Positions 13,993 to 25,617 of a stretch of 64,000 bases of DNA are shown piece by piece. The notes beneath the pieces were generated by a model, which made no database searches, was not told the origin of the DNA, and worked only from the letters and a program-made list of their open reading frames with translations. This DNA comes from Streptomyces davaonensis JCM 4913. GTDB taxonomy: Bacteria > Actinomycetota > Actinomycetes > Streptomycetales > Streptomycetaceae. The DNA lies in the NCBI RefSeq assembly GCF_000349325.1, contig NC_020504.1, positions 9,342,326-9,406,325 of the forward strand. Direction: 5' to 3'. Made by a program: the position numbers and the translations under genes. Positions within the stretch are counted from its first letter, which is position 1, and the number at the start of each line of letters is the position of its first letter.

Positions 13993-15409
13993 GTGCCAAG
14001 AGCGGGTCAACTGAAGTCATCTGGTGAGCGGTTGTCGGATCGGGTCGCGGTCGGGGTGCTGACGCAGGCGTTTCCTCAGTCGCTGGTGGATGAGGTGCTG
14101 GCGGAGACGGGCCGCGTGCAGCGGCGGAACCGGCTGTTGCCAGCCCGGCTGGTGGTCTACTTCGTGCTGGCGATGTGCCTGTTCTCCGGGCAGAGCTATG
14201 AGGAGGTCGCCCGGCTGCTGACCACGGGTTTGCAGGGTGCGCGGCGTTGGCGTGCATCGTGGGTGGTGCCGAGTACGGCGGCGATCTGGAAAGCCAGGTC
14301 CCGGCTGGGGGTGGCGCCGATGCGGCAGTTGTTCGCGCGGGTGTGCCGTCCGGTTGCGACACCGGGCACTCAGGGCGCCTTCTACCGCGACTGGCGGCTG
14401 ACCGCGATCGACGGCACCACATTTGACCTGCCCGACACGAAGGCGAACGTGGAGGCGTTCGGCCGTCCGCCCCGCTCCGGGCGCGGTGAACAGGACGTCG
14501 GCTACCCGCAGTTGCGCATGGTCGGCCTGGTGGAGTGCGGCACCCACGCCGTCTTCGACGTCGCGCTCGCAGCTCTTCGCACCGGAGAGCAGACCCTGGC
14601 CCGGACGGTCCTGAGATCCCTGCGGCAGGGCATGCTGCTGCTGGCCGACCGCGGCTTTTACGGCGTGGACCTGTGGCGCGAGGCAGCGGCGACCGGGGCG
14701 GACCTGCTGTGGCGGGTACGCAAAGACCTCGTGCTGCCGGTGGTCGAGCAGTTGCCGGACGGCTCGTATCTCACCGAGATCTTCGACCGCAGCGACATCC
14801 ACCACACCCGTCGCGGGGTGCCGGTACGCGCGGTGGAATACACCATTGCCGGACATGAGGGCGTCTACCGGCTCATCACCACGATCCTCGACCCGGACAA
14901 GGCCCCGGCCGCCGAACTGGCCGCCCTCTACGCCCAGCGATGGGAGTTCGAGTCCACCCTCGACGAGATCAAGACCCACCTCGGCGGGTCGCACCTGGTA
15001 CTGCGTTCGCAGCATCCTGACGGAGCTGAGCAGGAACTTTACGGCTTCCTGCTTGTCCACCACGCCATCCGGCACCTGATGCACCAGGCTGCACGACAAG
15101 TCGACCAGGACCCCGACCGGATCTCCTTCACCCGCTCACTGCGCGTCGTGCGCCGCCAGGTCACCGACCAGGCGGCCTTTTCCCCCCGGCCGGCTCGCCC
15201 GCGCCATCAAGGCCACCCACGCTGAACTCCTCGAACGCCTCCTGCCACGGCGCCGCCGCCGGGCCAACCCCCGCGTCATCAAACGCAAAGTCGCCAGCTG
15301 GCCGCTCAAACGCGTTGCCCACCGAGTCGCAGACCGCCCACGTGTTCCGGCCGTCACCATCGTTGGCGCCACCAAACCCAAACGGGTCAAGCGGACACCA
15401 AAGCCCTAA
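13993..15409 (+). pseudogene. IS4 family transposase with a 3' frameshift
   Basis: The main frame runs 13993-15225 (410 residues) and carries DDE motifs: A-I-D-G-T-T-F-D-L-P near residue 138, L-L-A-D-R-G-F-Y near 217, and R-W-E-F-E-S-T-L-D-E-I-K near 317. At 15180-15187 a TTTTCCCCCC run precedes a frame change: the family C-terminus (A-R-A-I-K-A-T-H-A-E-L-L-E-R then a basic tail) continues in the +1 frame to TAA 15407-15409, just at the right inverted repeat. Either one extra C has broken the gene or ribosomes shift on the run. Because the catalytic residues are upstream of the shift, residual activity is possible. Confidence 0.75.
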
Positions 15410-15420
15410 GTTACCGGTAT

Positions 15421-17198
15421 GACTCTGCTGGTGATGTTGGTAAGTCGCTGACGGCTGGCTGTGTGCGGTGCTTGGCTGGGAGCGTGCGGGGTGGTGTCGT
15501 CGGTGGAGGTGGTCGCGGTGTCGCTGCGGCCGGAGGATCACCAGCGAATCCCAGTACGGACGGTGCGAACGGCGCGGGCGGCGTGTCCGAAGGGCACCCC
15601 GGCCATGCTCATCCGGGACCGGTTGGATGTCCTGTTCGAGGATGAGGAGTTCGCCGACCTGTACCCCGACGACGGCAGGCCGGGACTGTCGCCGGGGCAG
15701 CTGGCGCTGGTGTCGGTGCTGCAGTTCGCGGAGAACCTGTCGGACCGGGCGGCGGCGGACGCGGTCCGCACCAGGATCGACTGGAAATACGCGATCGGCC
15801 TTGAGCTAGAGGATCCTGGATTCGACCACTCGGTCCTGTGCGAGTTCAGGGCCCGGCTGGCCGAACAGGACGGCGCCGCCGACCAGTTACTGGAGCTGAT
15901 GCTGGATCGCCTGGTGGAGGCCGGCCTGCTCAAGGCCGGGGGCCGGCAGCGTACCGATGCCACCCATGTGCTGGCGGCGGTGCGGACGCTCAGCCGCCTG
16001 GAGCTGGTCGCGGAGACGCTGCGAGCAGCCCTGGAGGAGCTGGCCGAGGCCGCCCCCGCCTGGCTGGCGCCGCTGATCGAGCCGGAGTGGGCCAAGCGGT
16101 ACGGACGCCGGGTGGAGATCGGCAAACTGCCGGGCGGGAAGGCGGCCGTGACCGCCCGGGCCGAGGAGTTCGGCCGGGACGGACAGAAGATCCTGACCGC
16201 CGCCTGGGCCGCCTGCGCCCCACCCGGCCTGCGGCTTCTTCCTCAGGTGGAGATCCTGCGCCAGGTCTGGGTCCACCACTACTTCTGGGACGTGGAGGGA
16301 TTGTTGCGCTGGCGGGACGGCCATGCTCTGCCGCCCGCCTCGCTGCGGTTCGACTCCCCGTATGACACCGATGCGCACTACTGCGTCAAACGGGACACCG
16401 CCTGGAGCGGATACCGGACGCATTTCACGGAAACCTGCGACGAAGAACGCCCCGGGCTGGTGGTCCATGTCGCCACCACCATCTCCACCGTCCAGGACAT
16501 CGAGCTGACCGACACCATCCACGACGAGCTCGCCGGGCGGCAGTTGCTGCCCGCGGAGCATGTGGTCGATGCCGGCTACATCTCTCCGGCACGTATCGAG
16601 CGGGCCCAGCGGGTGCACGGCATCACTCTGCTGGGCCCGGTTGTCGCCGACCACAGTGCCCAGGCCAAGGCCGGTTCGGGCTTCGCCAAGGCGGCCTTCA
16701 CCATCGACTGGGACAATGAGCAGGCGATCTGCCCGCGCGGGGCCACGAGCGTGTCCTGGACCAAGCTGAACATCAAGGACCACACCTATCTGCAGGCCCG
16801 GTTCGCCGAGGCGGACTGCCGGACCTGCCCAGACCGCGCGCACTGCACCTCTTCAGCCACCGGGCCCCGCTCCATCGCCGTGCTCCCCCGGCCGTTGCAC
16901 GAGATCCAGATGAGCAACCGGCTCGACCAGCGCACCGAGCAATGGCAGCGCCGCTACGCGATCCGCGCCGGCATCGAGGCCACTCTCTCGCAGAACGTCC
17001 GAGCCCACGGCCTGCGCCGTTCCCGCTACCGGGGCCTGGCGAAGACCCACGTCCAGCACGTCCTCACCGCCATGGCCTGCAACGTCACCCGGGTCTCCGA
17101 CTGGATATCCAGCACCACCAGAACCCGACGCCGCACCACACACTTTCACGCGCTATGCGCAGCCGCCGCATGACCCCGACAACATCACCAGCAGAGTC
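15421..17198. mobile_element. IS1182-type insertion sequence (copy 2), complete
   Basis: 1778 bases bounded by perfect 19-bp inverted repeats GACTCTGCTGGTGATGTTG (15421-15439 and reverse complement at 17180-17198). It is flanked by a 7-base direct repeat CCGGTAT (15414-15420 and 17199-17205) and sits 2 bases from the outer tip of the IS4-type right end. One intact transposase on the plus strand. Confidence 0.9.
15518..17173 (+). CDS. IS1182 family transposase
   Basis: About 551 residues from GTG 15518, which has GGAGG 8 bases upstream; an in-frame start at 15461 would add an unrelated N-terminus. It shows L-A-L-V-S-V-L-Q-F-A-E-N-L-S-D-R, S-P-Y-D-T-D-A-H-Y, E-H-V-V-D-A-G-Y, a C-R-T-C-P-D-R-x-x-C cysteine cluster and the catalytic R-A-G-I-E-A-T-L-S block. 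Full length without frameshift. It shares the family blocks with the copy at 12125-13786 but has different terminal repeats. Confidence 0.92.
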   Translation: MSLRPEDHQRIPVRTVRTARAACPKGTPAMLIRDRLDVLFEDEEFADLYPDDGRPGLSPGQLALVSVLQFAENLSDRAAADAVRTRIDWKYAIGLELEDPGFDHSVLCEFRARLAEQDGAADQLLELMLDRLVEAGLLKAGGRQRTDATHVLAAVRTLSRLELVAETLRAALEELAEAAPAWLAPLIEPEWAKRYGRRVEIGKLPGGKAAVTARAEEFGRDGQKILTAAWAACAPPGLRLLPQVEILRQVWVHHYFWDVEGLLRWRDGHALPPASLRFDSPYDTDAHYCVKRDTAWSGYRTHFTETCDEERPGLVVHVATTISTVQDIELTDTIHDELAGRQLLPAEHVVDAGYISPARIERAQRVHGITLLGPVVADHSAQAKAGSGFAKAAFTIDWDNEQAICPRGATSVSWTKLNIKDHTYLQARFAEADCRTCPDRAHCTSSATGPRSIAVLPRPLHEIQMSNRLDQRTEQWQRRYAIRAGIEATLSQNVRAHGLRRSRYRGLAKTHVQHVLTAMACNVTRVSDWISSTTRTRRRTTHFHALCAAAA

Positions 17199-17277
17199 CC
17201 GGTATTGAGCTTAGACGTCGTTTCCTTTGGTGCCTGGCGGCCGTCAGTGCTGTGTTGCGGTGTGAGAGTGTCCGGGC

Positions 17278-17634
17278 ATGAGTTACGACTTGGCCGTGTG
17301 GGACGGAGAGCGGCCAGCCAATGACAGGACCGCCGGTCGAGTCTTCACGGACCTCTTCGACCGCTACATGGAGACAGAGGTGTGCGATCCCCCGACCGAG
17401 CGCATCACGGCTTACGTTGCCGCGCTTGTGGAGCGGTGGGGTGACGTGGCTGAGGACGTGGAGGATGCTTCGCCGTGGGCGGCTGGGCCGTTGATCGGCG
17501 GGGCCGGTGGCCCGCTCGTCTACTTTGCGATGAGCTGGAGCAGGGCTGAGGAAGTCTCTGCCTGGGCAGCGGCCCTCGCGGAGTCAATGGGGCTGGTGTG
17601 CTTCGATCCTCAGCAGAATCGGCTCAGGCCCTGA
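17278..17634 (+). CDS. Conserved small protein, apparent IS cargo
   Basis: 118 residues, beginning M-S-Y-D-L-A-V-W-D-G-E-R-P-A. Small actinobacterial proteins with this start and with the features seen here (P-T-E-R-I-T-A-Y central block, a G-P-L-I-x-G-A-x-G-P-L-V-Y-F segment, G-L-V-C-F-D-P-Q near the C-terminus) are familiar to me as conserved hypotheticals; I know no established function. It is acidic, cytosolic and without membrane segments. It lies wholly between the IS5-type inverted repeats, convergent with the transposase and overlapping its 3' end by 11 bases, so it appears to be a passenger gene. Confidence 0.65.
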   Translation: MSYDLAVWDGERPANDRTAGRVFTDLFDRYMETEVCDPPTERITAYVAALVERWGDVAEDVEDASPWAAGPLIGGAGGPLVYFAMSWSRAEEVSAWAAALAESMGLVCFDPQQNRLRP

Positions 17635-18445
17635 CCCTCTTGGTCAGACGGCGGTATCCGATCAGAAGCGCCGCCAGGCCGACGAATGCTAGAAAGTGTT
17701 CCGGCTTCCGTTCGTAGCGGCGGTGCAGACGTCGGCATCCTGCCAGCCAGGACACGGTTCGCTCGACCACCCAGCGGTGTCGGCCGAGCCGAGTGGAAGG
17801 CTCGATGCCCTTGCGCGCAATGCGGTGGCGGATACCTCGTTCCCGAAGCCATTTCCGCAGGTGGTCGTAGTCGTAGCCTTTGTCGGCGTGCAGCTTGGCA
17901 GGCCGACGTCGGCGGGGACCGCGACGGGAGCTGATCGGCGGGATCCCACGTACGAGCGGCTTCAGACCAAGGCTGTCGTGCATATTGGCGCCGGAGATAC
18001 CCAGAGACAGCGGCAGTCCATTCCGGTCCGTGATGAGGTGGATCTTCGACCCCGACTTGCCGCGGTCGGTCGGATTCGGTCCGGTCAGTGGCCCCCTTTT
18101 GAGGCCCGGACACTGACAGAATCGATCGCGCACCGTGACCAGTCCAGCTCACCCCGGCTGCCGAGTTCGTCCAGGACGACGCGGTGCAGCCTGGCCCAGA
18201 CCCGGTCCCGGCTCCACTGGGCGAAGCGCCGGTAGACCGTCGGCCAGGCCAGCCCAAAGACAGGCGGCAGCTGCCGCCAGGTGCAACCCGAGGTGGCCAC
18301 GAAGATGATCGCGGCGGGCGTCTCCCGGTCACCGGGCCCGCCGCCGGCCACCGCCCTGCGGACGCTTCACCTCAACCGGCAGCACAACCCGCCGGAACAG
18401 CATCCACAAATCATCCGGCACCAACCGCTCAACCAGATCCGTCAT
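17624..18445 (-). pseudogene. IS5 family (IS427-like) transposase, split over frames
   Basis: The protein is spread over two frames. ATG 18445 opens the family N-terminus (M-T-D-L-V-E-R-L-V-P-D-D-L-W) but meets TGA at about 18332. The next frame, from GTG 18351, carries S-G-C-T-W-R-Q-L-P-P and D-S-V-S-V-R-A and stops at 18085. The original frame resumes from about 18100 with G-S-K-I-H-L-I, D-K-G-Y-D and the C-terminal R-x-x-V-E-R-T block to 17624. The second change is at AAAAGGGGG (about 18091-18099), a plausible -1 slippery site of the kind IS5-type elements use. The first change has no such site and looks like damage. Confidence 0.7.
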
Positions 18446-18719: not shown

Positions 18720-20054
18720 TTGCGGAAAGCGCGGCTGCTGAACCGGACGGCGGGGCCCGGCCCCCGGATTGGTTGGGCGGCGCGCGTCCGGGAAGCGGGG
18801 GCGCCTCTCGCGGTCCGCCCGTACCGGCTGCACTTCACCGCACGCGTGCTGTCGTGGACCGGGTCGGCGGTCTCGCCAATCGCTCTTGCCTTCGCTGTGC
18901 TGCACATTGGTGGGGGAGCGGGCGCGCTGGGCCTGGTCCTCGCGGTTAGCGTCGCCCCGCAGATCCTTCTACTCCTGGTGGGCGGAGTCGTCGCCGACCG
19001 GCTCCCGCGCGCCCGGGTCATGGTGTGGTCCAACGTGGTGTGCGCGCTCGCCGAGGGCCTCGCCGCCCTGCTGCTGTGGTCTGGCACGGCCCGGGTGTGG
19101 CACCTGGTACTCATGTCCGGGATTTGCGGCGCTGCATCGGCGTTCTTCACCCCGGCCGCCGGCGGCATCGTGAAGGAAGTGGTGCCGCCGGAGGCGAGGC
19201 ACGCGGCGAATGCCCTCCTGAAAATCGCTCAGAACCTCGTCAAGGTCGGAGGCCCGGCCATCGGCGGTGTCCTCGTCGCTGCGTCCGGCTCCGCCTGGGC
19301 CATCGGATGGGACGCGGCCACGTTCGCCGCATCCGCCCTCCTGTTCGCCCGGATCGGCCTTAGGTCGGGGCCGGTGAAGGTGAAGACTGGGTTCCTGGCC
19401 GATCTGCGCGACGGCTGGACCGACTTCCGCTCCCGCCGCTGGCTGTGGGTGATGGTCGTGCAAGGTGCGCTCGTCGTGCCGGTGTGGCTGGTCGGGTACC
19501 AGCTCCTCGGCCCGGTGTACGGCGCGCGGTTCCTCGGCGGGGCGGGGCTGTGGGGCCTGGTCGTCTCCGGGTTCACGGGCGGACTGGTGGCCGGGGCCGC
19601 CGTGGCGCTGATGTGGCGGCCCCGGCTGGTCGGCCGGGTGGTGTGTGCGGGTACCGGGTCACTCGCGCTGCCGCTCGCGGCGATGGCCGCCACCGCCCCG
19701 GTGCCGGTGCTCGTCGCCGCGACGGCGGCGGCCGGGACGGGCCTCGCGGTCAGCATGACCGTATGGTCCGGCCTGGTACAGGAACGCATCCCGGCCGACC
19801 GGCTGAGCCGAGCACTCTCATACTCGACACTCGGGCAGCTCGTTCCCGTGCCCTTCGGCTACCTCCTCGCGGGCCCGATCTCCCGCGCTGTGGGGATCCG
19901 CGCCACCCTCGCGGGCGGCGCCCTGGTGATCGTCCTTGCCGCGGTGGTTCCGCTGCTGATCCGTCAGGTTCGAGCCCTGGCCGTGGCTGGGCAGCCCGCA
20001 CACGAGTCGGTCCTCGCGGGCACGGCCGCAGTGTCCGCGCGAGCGCCGAGGTAG
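18720..20054 (+). CDS. MFS transporter, probable exporter of the RiPP cluster
   Basis: About 444 residues with roughly twelve hydrophobic segments, of the enterobactin-exporter-like MFS group (P-P-E-A-R-H-A-A-N-A-L and G-P-A-I-G-G-V-L-V between segments 4 and 5). TTG 18720 is chosen: GGAG lies 8 bases upstream and the first helix follows at the right distance; the frame is open back to 18558 but that part is not membrane-like and abuts the IS. It converges on the TfuA gene with a 91-base 3' overlap. It likely exports the modified peptide or gives self-protection (inference from position). The IS at 17211-18488 may have removed its original promoter. Confidence 0.78.
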   Translation: MRKARLLNRTAGPGPRIGWAARVREAGAPLAVRPYRLHFTARVLSWTGSAVSPIALAFAVLHIGGGAGALGLVLAVSVAPQILLLLVGGVVADRLPRARVMVWSNVVCALAEGLAALLLWSGTARVWHLVLMSGICGAASAFFTPAAGGIVKEVVPPEARHAANALLKIAQNLVKVGGPAIGGVLVAASGSAWAIGWDAATFAASALLFARIGLRSGPVKVKTGFLADLRDGWTDFRSRRWLWVMVVQGALVVPVWLVGYQLLGPVYGARFLGGAGLWGLVVSGFTGGLVAGAAVALMWRPRLVGRVVCAGTGSLALPLAAMAATAPVPVLVAATAAAGTGLAVSMTVWSGLVQERIPADRLSRALSYSTLGQLVPVPFGYLLAGPISRAVGIRATLAGGALVIVLAAVVPLLIRQVRALAVAGQPAHESVLAGTAAVSARAPR

Positions 20055-21352
20055 AACGCCCTGGCCACCTCGACCGCCCCGCCGAAATCGCGGAACCCCC
20101 GGTCGCGTGCCGCCGCATCCAGCACGGGCCGCCCCGCGCAGGCTGGGAGTCCCCACCGCGCGACGAGGTGCCGGCCGATGCGGTCGGCGGACAACCGCGC
20201 GATGGTGTGCCGGGGATCGGCCGCCTCGACGGCCGCATTCGCGGCGTACGCCGCGGCGACGTCCTCGGCCGTCGGTAACGAGTCGTCGACCAGCTCCCCG
20301 GCCTCGTCCCGGGCGGACGGCCACACCGACCACGCGCCATCCAACCGAGCCGAACGAACCATGATCCGGAGCAGCGCCTCACCCGGGGGCAGCGCCCCCA
20401 GCTCGGCCGGAGCGAGCCAGAACGCGAGTTGCTGCCGGGACATGGATGCCACGTCGACCCCCTCGGCCGCGGCGGTCCGCAGGGCAGCGGCCTCGGCGCC
20501 GTCCGGACCAACCTCTCCTCCGGCGACAGCCGACAGAACCCGGGCCCGCCACCGGGCCGGGAACCCGGCGTCGTAGAGCTGCTGGTGTTGGAGCACCGCG
20601 AGGAACGGCACACCGCCGCGGCCGGGGCGGTGCGCCGCCGTCCAGTACCGCACGAACGACGTCCGCCACGGCTCCGCCTCCCACCCCCGCGCCTCCGCCT
20701 CGGGTGCCGGCACCCCGCCCTCGGCCACCAGGACGAGGGCGCGCTCCGCGTCCTCCCGCTTCACGTCATACGGGTTGCGGCGACGCCACCCGTCGACTGC
20801 GGCGAACGCGGCCCCGGCCCCCTCCTCGCGGGCCTGCCGGGCGAGCGCGGACCACGTACGGCGGGTGTGGGGCAGCGCGCGGGCGAGCCCTTCGAGTGTG
20901 TCGGCGTCGGCCTCGCTGATCTGCCCGGTCTCAGCGCAACGGACCAGCGCGGCCCGGATGTTCACCAGGGCCTCGGACACCGGCTGTCCCTCGGGGGTAT
21001 GCAGAACAGAAACCTCGTCGTCGGCGTCCAGCACCCCGGCCGTCAGGTCCTCAAAGACGCGCCCGACGCTGGCCATGCCGTACGGCGCGAGCTCGGCCCC
21101 CCGCAGCGCGCCCATGCTCGCCGCGCCAACGACTCGAACCCCCTCGGCCAGCAACAACAAGATCTCTTTGTGCCGTACGGGAGCGCGCTGGTGCCACACC
21201 CCGTCAATGATCACGACCGTGTCGCCGGGAGTGGTATCGAGCCGCAACAGGTCACCGTGCCCGATCGGCGGATGACACACCGCGCCAGGCAGCAGCTCGC
21301 CGACGCGGGCGGCCGGGAGGGTCGGGCCGGAGAAGACATGCACGGTGCTCAC
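19964..21352 (-). CDS. TfuA-domain protein, YcaO partner
   Basis: 462 residues. Residues 1-125 are a TfuA core domain: H-V-F-S-G-P-T-L at the start, H-P-P-I-G-H-G-D, V-V-I-I-D-G-V-W-H, K-E-I-L-L-L-L-A-E-G and V-V-G-A-A-S-M-G-A-L-R-G-A-E. The long C-terminal extension is helical and unassigned. GTG 21352 overlaps the YcaO stop as GTGA, so the two are translationally coupled. TfuA proteins assist YcaO enzymes in backbone thioamide formation in methanogen McrA and in bacterial thioamidated RiPPs (established for those systems). Here the same reaction on the 51-residue peptide is an inference. Confidence 0.82.
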   Translation of the reverse strand: MSTVHVFSGPTLPAARVGELLPGAVCHPPIGHGDLLRLDTTPGDTVVIIDGVWHQRAPVRHKEILLLLAEGVRVVGAASMGALRGAELAPYGMASVGRVFEDLTAGVLDADDEVSVLHTPEGQPVSEALVNIRAALVRCAETGQISEADADTLEGLARALPHTRRTWSALARQAREEGAGAAFAAVDGWRRRNPYDVKREDAERALVLVAEGGVPAPEAEARGWEAEPWRTSFVRYWTAAHRPGRGGVPFLAVLQHQQLYDAGFPARWRARVLSAVAGGEVGPDGAEAAALRTAAAEGVDVASMSRQQLAFWLAPAELGALPPGEALLRIMVRSARLDGAWSVWPSARDEAGELVDDSLPTAEDVAAAYAANAAVEAADPRHTIARLSADRIGRHLVARWGLPACAGRPVLDAAARDRGFRDFGGAVEVARAFYLGARADTAAVPARTDSCAGCPATARART

Positions 21353-22551
21353 GCGGCGGACTCCTGACTCTGGCGGGCGCTGGTGCGCTCCTGCCGTGGG
21401 CGGGGGATGACGTGCCGGGAGTCGTACCGCAGGTGCGGCGCAACTACCTTGACGACCGAGAACACCCCGCCGTTCTCGTACGGGCCCTGCGTCAGGTCGA
21501 CGACCAGCGGGGCGGAGCCGGTCACGCTCGCGACGCGGGCGGCCAGGTGCCCGGCCTCGCGTTCGTGGGTGTCGAACCCGGCGGCGTACCGGGAAACGAT
21601 CGGCCCCCAGTCGGCGCCCGGTTCGGCCGCGGCGCCGGGGCCCTGGTGTCCGTCCTCCCGGTAGGCGGCTGGGGGGACGTCCTCGCGGCTCCCGGTGATC
21701 GCGGTCAGCCGGGACTGTGCGGCCTCGGTGATGGCCCGGGACAGGGCGATGTGCGGGTCGAGGTGGGCCCCGGACCCGGAGACCAGGAGCGCGGCCTGGT
21801 CCTCGCGCCACAGATAGGCCGCCATCACCGGCACGCCGAACCGGGTCGGGAGGTGCCACAACTCCAGCCACGCGCCCGCCTGGTGGGCGCGCTCGATCAG
21901 GCTCGCGCAGTGCGGATCACTCACGCTGCCCGGGTCGATGCGCTGTGGGAGGCCCTCGGGGGCGGGGCTGGTCAGGTTGCTGACGGCGTCCCGCTCGATC
22001 ACCTCGTACAACCCGTGCGCGACCGCCTCCGCCCTGGTGTTGCCGGAGGCAAGGCCGTTGGTCGACGCGCTCGGCAGGTGCAGCCGCCACCGGTCGTGAG
22101 TCTCCCGGCCGAGCTGCACGCACGCGGTCGGCACCGGCACAGGGGTGCCGTCGACCGCCGAGTAGGCGGTGATCCAGTCCAGCACCGTACGAGGGGTCAG
22201 CAACGAACCGGGGTGCGCCTCAAGTGCCGTCACTGGATAGGGCAGGCGCAGGGCCTCGGCCGGTGCCCGCTCGATGGCCGCGGGCACGGCGCGCTCGCCG
22301 TGCCACGCCTCGATGGCCTCCAGCGCGCCGGACACGCGGGCGGCGTCCAGCGTCGCCCCCTTGCCCTGCGCGACGCTCAGCGTGCGGGCCAAGGGCCGCA
22401 CGGCCATCGTGACGGGGATTCCGAGGTCGTCGAGCCCGGTCACGTCGGCAACGCGGGTGATGCCGTAGACCGCGAGCAGCGGCCGGAGCGCGGCCCACGT
22501 CTCGCCAGGATGGCGGGTGCGGTGGGCGCCGTCGAAGAACGCTTTGCGCAT
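21349..22551 (-). CDS. YcaO domain protein, putative peptide thioamidation enzyme
   Basis: 400 residues. ATP-binding YcaO motifs are clear: E-A-I-E-A-W-H-G-E at about residues 75-83, G-L-Y-E-V-I-E-R-D at about 177-185 and I-T-E-A-A-Q-S-R-L at about 270-278. The proline-rich P-x-P-x-P C-terminus typical of azoline-forming YcaO proteins is absent, in keeping with a TfuA-dependent type. ATG 22551 sits 8 bases after GAGGAG; the in-frame ATG 22557 is too close to it. Directly upstream are a hairpin and the candidate precursor gene; directly downstream, with overlapping stop and start, is the TfuA gene. Confidence 0.87.
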   Translation of the reverse strand: MRKAFFDGAHRTRHPGETWAALRPLLAVYGITRVADVTGLDDLGIPVTMAVRPLARTLSVAQGKGATLDAARVSGALEAIEAWHGERAVPAAIERAPAEALRLPYPVTALEAHPGSLLTPRTVLDWITAYSAVDGTPVPVPTACVQLGRETHDRWRLHLPSASTNGLASGNTRAEAVAHGLYEVIERDAVSNLTSPAPEGLPQRIDPGSVSDPHCASLIERAHQAGAWLELWHLPTRFGVPVMAAYLWREDQAALLVSGSGAHLDPHIALSRAITEAAQSRLTAITGSREDVPPAAYREDGHQGPGAAAEPGADWGPIVSRYAAGFDTHEREAGHLAARVASVTGSAPLVVDLTQGPYENGGVFSVVKVVAPHLRYDSRHVIPRPRQERTSARQSQESAA

Positions 22552-22579
22552 GGACATCTCTCCTCTCGGGGGACGGCGA

Positions 22580-22621
22580 GGCCCGGCCGCCGGACGCGGG
22601 GGAGCGTCCAACGGCCGGGCC
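22580..22621 (-). promoter_or_regulatory. GC-rich hairpin between precursor and ycaO (attenuator candidate)
   Basis: GGCCCGGCCG (22580-22589) pairs perfectly with CGGCCGGGCC (22612-22621), and inside it GGACGC (22592-22597) pairs with GCGTCC (22604-22609). It lies between the precursor stop (22649) and the YcaO start (22551). A partial terminator here would raise peptide over enzyme expression, as in many RiPP operons (inference). Confidence 0.6.
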
Positions 22622-22648
22622 GGTCAGCTACCGACTACCGACCTCCGG

Positions 22649-22804
22649 TCAGACGAGCACGGGGTAGGTGTGGGTGTCGGGGAACGCGCTGTCGGGAACG
22701 GCCGGGTCGCCGCCGCTGTTCTGCGGCATGGCGCCGTCCGCGTGCAGTTCGCCGATGAAGTCGGCCGGGTCCGCCAGCACGACGGTGGTCACGGGCACGG
22801 GCAT
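22649..22804 (-). CDS. Candidate RiPP precursor peptide (51 aa)
   Basis: 51 residues from ATG 22804, with GAGGAGG 6 bases upstream, one of the best ribosome sites in the region. Residues 1-25 (P-V-T-T-V-V-L-A-D-P-A-D-F-I-G-E-L) have a hydrophobic/acidic pattern suited to a leader that an enzyme recognises. The C-terminal half is rich in Pro, Asp, Gly and Ser and ends S-A-F-P-D-T-H-T-Y-P-V-L-V. There is no Cys, so lanthionine or thiazole chemistry is excluded; backbone thioamides and hydroxylated Pro, Asp or His remain possible. It is too short for gene finders to rank highly but lies exactly between the oxygenases and YcaO on the same strand. Confidence 0.72.
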   Translation of the reverse strand: MPVPVTTVVLADPADFIGELHADGAMPQNSGGDPAVPDSAFPDTHTYPVLV

Positions 22805-22836
22805 GGGTTCCTCCTCGGAACTCGTAACGGTTGCTG

Positions 22837-23457
22837 CTACACCGACAGATCGGTGAAACAGACGGTGACCAGCACCTCGCGCGATTGGCCATCGAGCGGG
22901 GCACGCCAGTGGGGAATCCGGGACCCGTCGAATGCGGTCAGGGCCCTGTATCGCACGGGAAACGCGTCGCCGTCCGGGTACGGCGTATCCGCGAGCCGCT
23001 CGACGACCTCCTCGGTCGTCAGCCATCGCAGGTTCGGCAGCCACCCCATGGAACCGAGGCCGGGCGTCAGGGCGGCGCTCATCGTCAGCTCGCACTTCCC
23101 GTCGTCGCGGTGAACGTGCATAAAGTCGCCGGGCTTGTAGAACTTGTACCCGAAGCGGATCGCCGTCATCTTCGCGGCGCCGGTCGCCTCGGCCGCCACG
23201 TCCGCGAGCGCCTTGGACTGTGCGAGGGCCCGCAGCGCCGCCGCGCCGGGGTGGACCGTGCAGCGCTGCGGACTCGTGATCGAGCCGTCCCGCATCGCCA
23301 GAAGGCCAGGCCGCTGGTTGTGCCGGACGGCCGCGACCGGCTCCAGCCGCTCGGCCTCCTCGGCGAGCTCCTCCCACAGGCCCGCCTCGATCGCGTCGGC
23401 CGGCACGTCCGCCCGGCCCTGGGCGAGCCACGTCCGCCGCAGGGTTCCGGCGACCAT
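22837..23457 (-). CDS. 2-oxoglutarate/Fe(II)-type oxygenase, copy 2
   Basis: 206 residues, paralogous to the gene just upstream. The iron site is readable: H-V-H-R-D-D, giving His-x-Asp at about residues 118-120, and the distal His in I-P-H-W-R-A-P-L about 65 residues later, followed by the Arg region that would bind 2-oxoglutarate and a C-terminal strand V-T-V-C-F-T-D-L. The layout is that of prolyl-4-hydroxylase-like enzymes acting on peptides. ATG 23457 overlaps the previous stop as TGATG, so translation is coupled. It precedes the precursor by 32 bases. Expected to hydroxylate the peptide (inference); side chain unknown. Confidence 0.72.
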   Translation of the reverse strand: MVAGTLRRTWLAQGRADVPADAIEAGLWEELAEEAERLEPVAAVRHNQRPGLLAMRDGSITSPQRCTVHPGAAALRALAQSKALADVAAEATGAAKMTAIRFGYKFYKPGDFMHVHRDDGKCELTMSAALTPGLGSMGWLPNLRWLTTEEVVERLADTPYPDGDAFPVRYRALTAFDGSRIPHWRAPLDGQSREVLVTVCFTDLSV

Positions 23458-24095
23458 CACAGGTCCATGAACGACATAGTGACGAGGAGACCCGCCTCCA
23501 CAGGCAGCGGGGGCCGCCAGTGCGCGAAGTGGTACCCAGCGAACGCCCGGACCGAGCCGTCGTTGTAGGGGTGGGGCAGCGTCGTGAACTGCGCCCCCTC
23601 CGGGAACATCCCGAACTCGGCGACAACGTCCGCGAGGTGCCGGCCGTCCGGGTGGCGCAGGTGCGGCGCCCACCCCATCGGCGGAAGGTCCGGCGTCAGG
23701 GCGATACCGACCGTGACCGTGGATTTCGACGAGTCCGTGTGGAGCCCCTGAAAGTCGCCCCGGCGGTAGAGGACGACCGCGCCGCCGCGGGGGATCAGGC
23801 GCGGGATGCCGGTCGCCTCGCGTAGCGCCATCAGCAGCGGCTTGTCGTACGCGAGCTGATCGAGCACCGGGCCCGGCGGGATGAAACCGCAGTGAACCGG
23901 CGTCGCGAAGCTGCCGTCGCGGTGGGCGGCGGTGTGGTCGTGCACGTGCGGCGTGACCAGGTCGAGGCGGTCGGCCGCCTCCTCCTCCAAGGCCTTGAAG
24001 CGGTCCGGCGGCAGCACGTCGGGCAGCACGACCGTGCCGGTCTCCTCCCAAGCGGTGCGCGCCGGGAGCCGTTCTGCAAGTGCAGCGGTATCCAT
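23457..24095 (-). CDS. 2-oxoglutarate/Fe(II)-type oxygenase, copy 1
   Basis: 212 residues. The motif G-L-H-T-D at about residues 117-121 gives the His-x-Asp iron ligands; A-H-W-R-P-P-L near residue 195 gives the distal His; the C-terminus V-T-M-S-F-M-D-L matches the last strand of copy 2, and both share the L-T-P-x-L-x-x-M-G-W segment after the iron motif. It is the first gene of the putative operon, reading away from the XRE regulator with the palindrome between. The two oxygenases are clearly paralogues but have diverged widely, which suggests different residues or successive oxidations. Confidence 0.74.
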   Translation of the reverse strand: MDTAALAERLPARTAWEETGTVVLPDVLPPDRFKALEEEAADRLDLVTPHVHDHTAAHRDGSFATPVHCGFIPPGPVLDQLAYDKPLLMALREATGIPRLIPRGGAVVLYRRGDFQGLHTDSSKSTVTVGIALTPDLPPMGWAPHLRHPDGRHLADVVAEFGMFPEGAQFTTLPHPYNDGSVRAFAGYHFAHWRPPLPVEAGLLVTMSFMDL

Positions 24096-24191
24096 GATCC
24101 CTCCGAGGTCTCGGACGTCTCTTTGCCGGTGCCCTCAGCAAAGCGCCCGCCGTACGAGCCGTCACCGCACACAGCGGCTCGGATCAAGTGG

Positions 24192-24208
24192 CTTGCAGAT
24201 CCTGCAAG
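24192..24208. promoter_or_regulatory. 17-bp palindrome, probable XRE operator
   Basis: CTTGCAG-ATC-CTGCAAG is a perfect 7-bp inverted repeat with a 3-base spacer, in the 193-base space between the divergent oxygenase and XRE genes. TTGACC, a good -35 box for the XRE gene direction, follows at 24209-24214. The simplest reading is that the XRE protein binds here and controls both directions. Confidence 0.65.
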
Positions 24209-24288
24209 TTGACCGCCAACTGCCTAGCGGAGGATTAGCCGCTGGCTACCGTGGAAGCCGCCCCCTTCGTGAGGGGCGTGGAGGCCCG

Positions 24289-25617
24289 ATGACCAGCCCC
24301 ACCACCCATGCGCACAGCTCCCACGACATCGGCGCACTCATCCGTGGCCGCCGCACGGAACGCCGCATGACCCAAGCTCAGCTCGGCAAGATCCTGGGAT
24401 ACTCCGAGTCCTGGGTCTCCCGCCTGGAGGCCAACCAGATCAGCCCCGCCGTCAGCGTGCTCGCCCATCTCTCCCGGATCCTTCAACTCACACCCGCAGA
24501 GCTCGGATTCGTTACTCCGCCCCCGGACGGGCGAGCCACCCACCCAGGCACCGACGCGTACGGCACTAAGGTGGGCGGCATTGAAGACCTGGACGACCAG
24601 GAGGACGCGGTGCGGCGCAGAACCTTCCTTGCGGGCGCGGCCGGTCTCGGCGCTGCCGCTGCAGGCATCCCCTCCCCTGCCGACGCCGCGGAGTCGGCGG
24701 CACTGACCGGGCTGGAGGACTTACTGCTGTACGGGCCGCCGCCGCTCACTGTCCAGTCCTCCCGTGCGGCTGCGGCTCTAGCCGTTCGCACCTCCCGCGC
24801 TGAACTGCTCGCCGGCCGCTACGCCCAGCTCGCCCGTGCTCTTCCCCAGCGGCTCGCCCTCACCCAGGCCCTGGAGGACGCAGGGCGGAATGCCACCGCC
24901 GAACTGTGGTGCGTCGCCGCCCGGCTGGCTATCAAACGCGGCGACGATCGGCTCACCGCCATCACCGCGGACCGCGCCCTCACCAGTGCTGGGCAGGTCG
25001 ACGCGCCGCTCGTCCTGGCGGAGGCTCACCGCATGGTCTCCAGCGCCCACCGCCGTTACGGTCAACACCAGCGCGCCACCGCTGTCGCCGTCCGTGCCGC
25101 CGACCAGCTCATGGCCACCCACGTACCCGACGCCGCCGGACGCCTGTCCGCGGTCGGCAACCTACTGGCCACCGCCGCCTACAGCGCCGCCAAGGCAGGC
25201 GACCGCGACACCGCGCTCACACTGCTCAAGGATGCCCGTGCCCGCGCCACCCAGCTCGGCGCCACCCGCACACGGCCCGAGAGCATCGGCTACTTCGGCA
25301 CCGAACAGGTTGCCCTCCACGAGGTATCGGTCCATTACCTCCTCGGCGATGCCGGCGCCGCCATCGCCACCGCACGCACCATTCCCGTCGACACCCTCCC
25401 CGCCGAACGCCAAGCCCGCCTCTACCTCGACGTCGCCCGCGCCTACGACCAGTGGGGCAAAGCACACAAGTGCCTCGCCGCCCTCACCGCCACCGAGCGC
25501 GTCGCGCCCCAGGAAGCCCGGCGGGACAGCGTCCGCATTCTCGTGAAGGGTCTCCTCACCTCGCCCCAGCCGGTCCCGGGCACCCGAGCCTTCGCCCGCA
25601 AGGTCGGCGCCATCTGA
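24289..25617 (+). CDS. XRE family regulator with TPR-like C-terminus
   Basis: 442 residues. The helix-turn-helix is at residues 14-70 (L-I-R-G-R-R-T-E-R-R-M-T-Q-A-Q-L-G, S-E-S-W-V-S-R-L-E). After it comes R-R-R-T-F-L-A-G-A-A-G-L-G, a Tat-like string seen in this regulator family, then a long helical TPR-like region (about 170-430). ATG 24289 follows GGAGG. Regulators of this build often stand next to peptide clusters in Streptomyces and probably sense a small molecule or peptide through the TPR part. Divergent from the RiPP-type operon with a palindrome between them. Confidence 0.82.
   Translation: MTSPTTHAHSSHDIGALIRGRRTERRMTQAQLGKILGYSESWVSRLEANQISPAVSVLAHLSRILQLTPAELGFVTPPPDGRATHPGTDAYGTKVGGIEDLDDQEDAVRRRTFLAGAAGLGAAAAGIPSPADAAESAALTGLEDLLLYGPPPLTVQSSRAAAALAVRTSRAELLAGRYAQLARALPQRLALTQALEDAGRNATAELWCVAARLAIKRGDDRLTAITADRALTSAGQVDAPLVLAEAHRMVSSAHRRYGQHQRATAVAVRAADQLMATHVPDAAGRLSAVGNLLATAAYSAAKAGDRDTALTLLKDARARATQLGATRTRPESIGYFGTEQVALHEVSVHYLLGDAGAAIATARTIPVDTLPAERQARLYLDVARAYDQWGKAHKCLAALTATERVAPQEARRDSVRILVKGLLTSPQPVPGTRAFARKVGAI

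What the first reader, a model, noticed from the sequence alone, without database searches (positions are those of the whole stretch)
18720..25617. TfuA-YcaO RiPP-type cluster with tandem oxygenases and a cysteine-free precursor
Seen: on one strand two paralogous His-x-Asp oxygenases, a 51-residue peptide, YcaO and a TfuA-domain protein, with TGATG and GTGA couplings, an MFS exporter convergent and an XRE regulator divergent. Known: YcaO with TfuA makes backbone thioamides in several RiPPs and in McrA. Inference: the product would be a thioamidated and hydroxylated linear or macrocyclic peptide. I know of no described RiPP with YcaO, TfuA and two such oxygenases around a Pro/Asp-rich, Cys-free core, so it may be a new class.
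Basis: partly seen in the sequence, partly recalled or inferred. Interest (0 to 1): 0.87.

Follow-up and report, generated by a model that had tools for sequence, protein, structure and literature searches.

The report
Two-oxygenase YcaO-TfuA peptide cluster
A compact, mobile gene set in Streptomyces and a few relatives very probably makes a small ribosomal peptide whose backbone receives sulfur and whose side chains are oxidised by two related enzymes; the nearly unchanged peptide in different hosts suggests a natural-product class that has not been studied.

Summary
On the minus strand lie Ox1 (24095-23457), Ox2 (23457-22837), a 51-residue Cys-free peptide (22804-22649), YcaO (22557-21349) and TfuA (21352-19964), with an MFS gene convergent and an HTH regulator divergent. 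It is not a one-off: 19 distinct loci (window included) carry Ox1-Ox2-peptide-YcaO in this order, and TfuA follows in 18 (the other contig ends just after ycaO). They are on Streptomyces chromosomes, five Streptomyces plasmids, Actinomadura rupiterrae and a Sporichthyaceae MAG. All peptides keep DPA[DE]FxxxLHxxGxxPxxxGGDPxVPD. YcaO and TfuA align with the solved archaeal thioamidation proteins. Of 47 other Streptomyces TfuA loci, none shows either oxygenase. In two genomes an Ox1 domain is fused to a TfuA of another YcaO lineage with a different, Cys-containing peptide. I read it as a distinct class of thioamidated RiPP with two side-chain oxygenases; no chemistry is shown. 'Macrocyclic' has no support, and one oxygenase beside YcaO-TfuA is already known (TsaJ). 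Eight literature searches found no description, but the supplement of the 2019 RiPPER survey, which may list the peptide, was not readable.

The parts
23457..24095 (-). Ox1, 212-residue H-x-D...H oxygenase
   Evidence: Ox1 in 19 of 19 loci; H119, D121, H192, R194 invariant in 16 of 16 aligned; confident model, pLDDT 90.3, pTM 0.86; no family match for the window protein
22837..23457 (-). Ox2, 206-residue paralogue of Ox1
   Evidence: 35% identical to Ox1; in 19 of 19 loci; H116, D118, H183, R185 invariant in 14 of 14 aligned, Arg at H+10 in 11 of 14; no Pfam match in 14 of 14
22649..22804 (-). 51-residue peptide, predicted precursor: leader about 1-26, core mostly 27-47
   Evidence: conserved in 19 of 19 loci, 17 different sequences aligned, 15 invariant positions; no Cys in any; annotated as a hypothetical protein gene in 5 of 5 plasmids
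22581..22620 (-). GC-rich inverted repeat between peptide gene and ycaO
   Evidence: present in 13 of 13 aligned sequences (6 of the 19 loci were not given to the call), almost no covariation
21349..22557 (-). YcaO, predicted amide-activating thioamidation enzyme
   Evidence: PF02624 E 1.8e-65; TIGR00702 206 bits, cut-off 75.65; aligns with MJ1094 6pe3, E 8.6e-25; 19-row clade 100/99
19964..21352 (-). TfuA with a 250-residue C-terminal extension of unknown role
   Evidence: PF07812 E 2.4e-39; aligns with 6xp8 over residues 24-206, E 5.5e-27
18720..20054 (+). MFS transporter, convergent, overlapping tfuA by 91 bp (TTG start inferred)
   Evidence: MFS_1 E 8.7e-26; homologue in 16 of 19 loci, only a 276-residue stretch in L026
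24289..25617 (+). HTH (XRE-type) regulator, divergent
   Evidence: HTH_31 E 1.4e-10; start; not orthologous to most regulators in the same slot elsewhere

Best explanation
A RiPP operon of a class I found no description of. The 51-residue peptide is the precursor: the N-terminal half with DPADFIxELHxxG is the leader, the near-invariant PQNxGGDPxVPDSAFPDTHTY mostly the core. YcaO with TfuA replaces at least one backbone carbonyl oxygen by sulfur: YcaO activates the amide with ATP, TfuA supplies sulfide. Ox1 and Ox2 oxidise core side chains. The invariant D33, P34, P37 and D38 are the likeliest targets (beta-hydroxy-Asp or hydroxy-Pro); G31 or G32 is my guess for the thioamide. A host protease removes the leader, the MFS protein exports the product, the HTH protein controls the operon. 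Shown here: the genes, their conserved order, conservation of the peptide, homology to the solved archaeal pair, the H-x-D...H motif in both oxygenases, their restriction to YcaO-TfuA loci in the genomes searched, and the TfuA-Ox1 fusion. Inferred: every chemical step, its site and order, the leader/core border, export and regulation.
For: Order Ox1-Ox2-peptide-YcaO in 19 of 19 loci and TfuA in 18; peptide conserved with codon-position bias 16/11/25 and pN/pS 0.55 over the 36-codon block, 0.44 over codons 27-47; YcaO and TfuA align with 6pe3 and 6xp8; peptide profile found in 7 of 392 Streptomyces genomes, all seven with the cluster; 0 of 47 other TfuA loci with Ox1 or Ox2; TfuA-Ox1 fusion in two genomes; same block on five plasmids; pair required for thioamidation in thiostreptamide S4 (PMC8153245, passages).
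Against: No product, thioamide or oxidation is shown. The McrA-type equivalog models match below their cut-offs (TIGR03266 191.8 of 365; NF033432 164.6 of 235.2), so the exact YcaO-TfuA reaction rests on the general family. Ox1 lacks a conserved basic residue about ten positions after the distal His, so 2-oxoglutarate use is unproven. No leader peptidase or recognition element was found. pN/pS is only moderately low. No fold comparison could be run.
Confidence: 0.75

Rival explanations
1. It is a trimmed member of the thioamitide (thioviridamide-like) family: same thioamidation and hydroxylation logic, macrocycle genes lost.
For: YcaO, TfuA and an oxygenase beside a short peptide, as in tsa (PMC8153245, passages). 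Two of 16 Ox1 sequences, both the fused ones, match PhyH (PF05721), TsaJ's family, below the curated cut-off (20.0 and 20.3 of 22 bits).
Against: None of the 19 peptides has Cys, which the AviMeCys macrocycle needs; no decarboxylase, His methyltransferase or HopA1-like gene is part of the conserved block. No named thioamitide YcaO was put in the tree.
Confidence: 0.05
2. The peptide is not the precursor but a small accessory protein of the enzymes (carrier, chaperone or regulator); the substrate is elsewhere.
For: ThiS-like and acyl carrier proteins are known among small genes beside TfuA (PMC6511847 section 18). The peptide is strongly conserved, as a partner protein would be.
Against: No family match; C-terminal tail varies in length and sequence; it does not end in Gly-Gly as ThiS does (recalled). 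The Ox1-fusion systems have an unrelated short peptide just before ycaO.
Confidence: 0.1
3. YcaO forms azolines at Ser/Thr (LAP-like) instead of thioamides, and the oxygenases act on those rings.
For: The core holds Ser and Thr; YcaO cyclodehydratases of that type are in the same superfamily (SagD-type model hit below cut-off, 106 of 219 bits).
Against: TfuA is present in 18 of 18 loci where the contig continues; no E1-like partner or flavin dehydrogenase is part of the conserved block; S30 and S39 are not invariant.
Confidence: 0.06

Closest known systems
Thioamitides (thioviridamide, thiostreptamide S4; PMC8153245, passages read)
   Same: YcaO-TfuA pair required for thioamidation; an Fe(II)/2-oxoglutarate oxygenase (TsaJ, PF05721) hydroxylates the core
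   Different: Cys-derived AviMeCys macrocycle and His methylation there; here Cys-free peptides, two oxygenases outside PF05721's cut-off, no such extra genes in the conserved block
Thiovarsolins (PMC6511847, sections 17-18 and passages read)
   Same: YcaO, TfuA, short precursor, MFS gene, one oxidative enzyme, Streptomyces
   Different: Heme-oxygenase-like VarO and repeated core there; here two H-x-D...H enzymes and a single core
std cluster of S. thermodiastaticus (PMC13174530, passages read)
   Same: YcaO-TfuA, MFS permease, oxidative enzyme, conserved core motif
   Different: MNIO with partner protein, carbamoyltransferase and SNKEWQE core there
Archaeal McrA-glycine thioamidation pair (MJ1094 6pe3; TfuA 6xp8)
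   Same: Sequence homology of both proteins
   Different: Acts on McrA, no peptide or oxygenase; here below the equivalog cut-offs
SmaO/SmaX oxygenase pair of a graspetide (seen only as cited in PMC13097080, passages read)
   Same: Two enzymes that oxidise Asp in turn in a ribosomal peptide
   Different: Graspetide context without YcaO-TfuA as described there; sequences not compared

Membership tests
YcaO-TfuA thioamidated RiPP | Adjacent YcaO and TfuA genes | tested here: met
   (18 of 18 loci where the contig continues)
YcaO-TfuA thioamidated RiPP | Conserved short precursor in the operon | tested here: met
   19 of 19 loci
YcaO-TfuA thioamidated RiPP | Backbone thioamide in the product | not testable with these tools
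   needs expression and mass spectrometry
Thioamitides | Core Cys for the AviCys/AviMeCys macrocycle | tested here: not met
   no Cys in any of the 19 peptides
Thioamitides | Oxygenase of PF05721 (TsaJ type) | tested here: inconclusive
   0 of 14 Ox2; 2 of 16 Ox1 below the cut-off, both fused domains
Thiovarsolins | Heme-oxygenase-like VarO | tested here: not met
   no such Pfam match for Ox1 or Ox2
std-type thioamidated RiPP | SNKEWQE core, MNIO and carbamoyltransferase | tested here: not met
   motif absent from all 17 aligned sequences; no such gene in the conserved block
Fe(II)/2-oxoglutarate oxygenases | H-x-D...H facial triad | tested here: met
   motif in 16 of 16 Ox1 and 14 of 14 Ox2; geometry not checked
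Fe(II)/2-oxoglutarate oxygenases | Basic 2-oxoglutarate ligand about +10 from the distal His (recalled) | tested here: inconclusive
   Arg in 11 of 14 Ox2; none conserved in Ox1, though an Arg at +2 is invariant
Fe(II)/2-oxoglutarate oxygenases | Double-stranded beta-helix fold | tested here: inconclusive
   confident, strand-rich Ox1 model; no fold search could be run (for example)

The most novel reading that the evidence does not exclude
A new class of thioamidated RiPP whose nearly fixed core is held by function rather than diversified like a bacteriocin, for example a metal-binding or signalling peptide with a backbone thioamide beside two oxidised Asp/Pro residues. Ox1 is a portable module that recognises the thioamidated peptide or its TfuA: it was captured from such a cluster and fused to the TfuA of an unrelated YcaO system acting on a different peptide.
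Probability: 0.3. Interest if true: 0.8.

Novelty: new variant of a known kind. Interest (0 to 1): 0.62.

Why it matters
Few classes of YcaO-TfuA peptides are characterised; a 2026 preprint counts four besides its own (PMC13174530, passage). This operon is small, occurs on plasmids, has a clear precursor and two oxygenases outside the named families searched, so it suits expression in a laboratory Streptomyces. The TfuA-Ox1 fusion makes a coupling of oxidation to thioamidation directly testable. A core this constant across genera raises the question of what it binds.

Tried and rejected
Naming the oxygenases: no match for the window's proteins. Profile search of solved structures: best hit for Ox1 halogenase B 7u6i at E 0.9, only engineered helical proteins for Ox2. 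Sub-threshold PhyH in the two fused domains, HalD once at E 0.29. Spread in the phylum: 1 of 396 genomes, the window's own, so the group is rare in that sample. A peptide-sensing regulator was considered because HTH-TPR proteins can sense peptides (recalled), but the regulators in this slot are of several kinds and the window's is close to few of them. The hairpin after the peptide gene shows almost no covariation. The closest outside YcaO loci gave no related precursor: L088, L089, L106, L128 and L113, L088, L089, L101 and L113; simple start and ribosome-site rules were used, so a precursor may be missed. Strings of the peptide in print: 0 papers. Literature searches.
Full report
What is there. 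The window ends 60 kb from the right end of a 9.47 Mb contig; its genus is Streptomyces, since genome G125 of the same genus shares a contig of the same length and match with S. griseoruber. On the minus strand run Ox1, Ox2, a 51-residue peptide, YcaO and TfuA, with TGATG and GTGA junctions and a good ribosome site before the peptide. An MFS gene (18720-20054) converges and overlaps the end of tfuA by 91 bp; an HTH regulator (24289-25617) diverges.

More than chance? Ox1 as query matched 7 of 295 Streptomyces genomes, the window's own included, at 16 places. A scan of genome contigs with the Ox1 alignment gave 11 loci, and 5 of 72,556 plasmid records matched. The two fusion loci L024 and L025 are treated apart. 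Nineteen loci remain. Ox1, Ox2, peptide and YcaO are in 19 of 19; TfuA in 18, the contig of L034 ending just after ycaO; an MFS homologue in 16, in L026 only as a 276-residue stretch. L033 has an APH-family gene after tfuA and L020 its homologue in place of the MFS gene. Two loci are outside Streptomyces: Actinomadura rupiterrae and a Sporichthyaceae MAG. Where neighbours are annotated on the five plasmids they differ (L042 lists few), so the block probably moves as a unit. The regulator slot is filled by proteins of several kinds, and L023 has an M20 peptidase gene there.

The peptide. The 19 loci give 17 different sequences (L041 and L042 equal L040). Fifteen positions are invariant: D12 P13 A14 F16 L20 H21 G24 P27 G31 G32 D33 P34 V36 P37 D38; Q28, N29, S39, F41 and Y47 nearly so. 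The Actinomadura peptide is longer and its tail does not align. None has Cys. In a 36-codon block (18 loci, Actinomadura left out) variable sites are 16/11/25 by codon position; pN/pS is 0.55, and 0.44 over codons 27-47: purifying selection, but moderate. The peptide profile matched 7 of 392 Streptomyces genomes: five with the cluster already seen, and two whose loci also hold Ox1, Ox2, YcaO and the start of TfuA.

The thioamidation pair. YcaO aligns with MJ1094 (E 8.6e-25) and TfuA with 6xp8 (E 5.5e-27). The McrA equivalog models match below their cut-offs, as expected for relatives with another substrate. The Ser of ASMGALR and a Lys of D(V/I)KR are shared with 6xp8; a Ser-Lys pair is reported for TfuA (PMC13185837, passage), but I did not verify that these are the residues. 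In thiostreptamide S4 the pair TsaH/TsaI is required for thioamidation (PMC8153245, passages).

The oxygenases. Both keep H-x-D...H and a Trp-Arg after the distal His. The Ox1 model is confident (pLDDT 90.3, pTM 0.86, 16-row alignment), but no fold comparison could be run. Ox2 has Arg at +10 from the distal His in 11 of 14; Ox1 has no conserved basic residue there, so 2-oxoglutarate use is more doubtful for Ox1. Of 291 Streptomyces genomes 50 have TfuA, 56 matches. I fetched the 47 loci not already held, up to 7 kb each side and less at contig ends: none has a hit of the Ox1 or Ox2 profile. Within this sample the oxygenases mark this group.

A natural fusion. In G290 and G230 an Ox1 domain is the C-terminal part of a TfuA polypeptide. 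A different Cys-containing peptide (33 and 32 residues, ending GTFVACSAE; the start of the second is inferred) stands before ycaO, and there is no Ox2. In the YcaO tree (67 rows; L108 gave no YcaO) the 19 window-type proteins form a clade (100/99), nearest to L088, L089, L113 and L128, and the two fusion systems lie elsewhere, beside L101 (the program warns of long branches, L101 among them). In the oxygenase tree (30 rows, plasmid rows not included) the fused domains sit inside the window-type Ox1 group beside L020 and L033 (100/99). The simplest reading is that Ox1 was taken from a window-type cluster into another YcaO-TfuA system. Roots are midpoints and no formal rejection test was run; identities of 52-55% for Ox1 against 38% for YcaO agree.

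Reading and limits. I take this as a thioamidated RiPP class with two side-chain oxygenases; target residues are guesses from invariance. No cyclising enzyme belongs to the conserved block, so a linear product is likelier than a macrocycle. The RiPPER survey (PMC6511847; sections 17 and 18 read, other passages) had 229 actinobacterial TfuA proteins and 74 peptide networks. What I read of it does not describe this gene set, but its supplement was not readable here, so the peptide may be listed there. The 2021 survey (PMC8120280, passages) names a phytanoyl-CoA dioxygenase gene in a figure legend without details that identify this cluster. Most subscription papers are not in the library searched.

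Verdict. Observation confirmed; interpretation partly supported; a new variant of a known kind, with a fair chance of being a RiPP class of its own.

Noticed in passing
window 13993-18351: Three transposase genes in a row on the MFS side of the cluster: IS4-type, DDE_Tnp_1_6 type, and an IS4/5-family gene split over two frames.
   Followed up: partly
window 22581-22620: GC-rich inverted repeat between peptide gene and ycaO, in 13 of 13 aligned relatives (6 of 19 loci not given), with almost no covariation; perhaps an attenuator or mRNA stabiliser.
   Followed up: partly
L024 3642-10280; L025 13236-9730: TfuA-Ox1 fusion systems with a different peptide ending GTFVACSAE; L024 also has a JmjC_2-domain protein and an MFS-like ORF upstream.
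   Followed up: partly
L020 and L033, after tfuA: An APH-family gene (PF01636 tested in L033; homologue in L020) stands where others have the MFS gene.
   Followed up: no
G159 contig C1, about 15-19 kb, 65-69 kb and 9,624-9,628 kb: One genome carries two different copies of the cluster near the left end, one of them repeated near the right end of the contig.
   Followed up: partly
L088 1595-4168: A nearby outside YcaO-TfuA lineage has a second, 857-residue protein with a C-terminal YcaO domain close by.
   Followed up: no
window 19964-20054: tfuA and the convergent MFS gene overlap at their 3' ends by 91 bp; similar overlaps in several relatives, for example L019 and L038.
   Followed up: no
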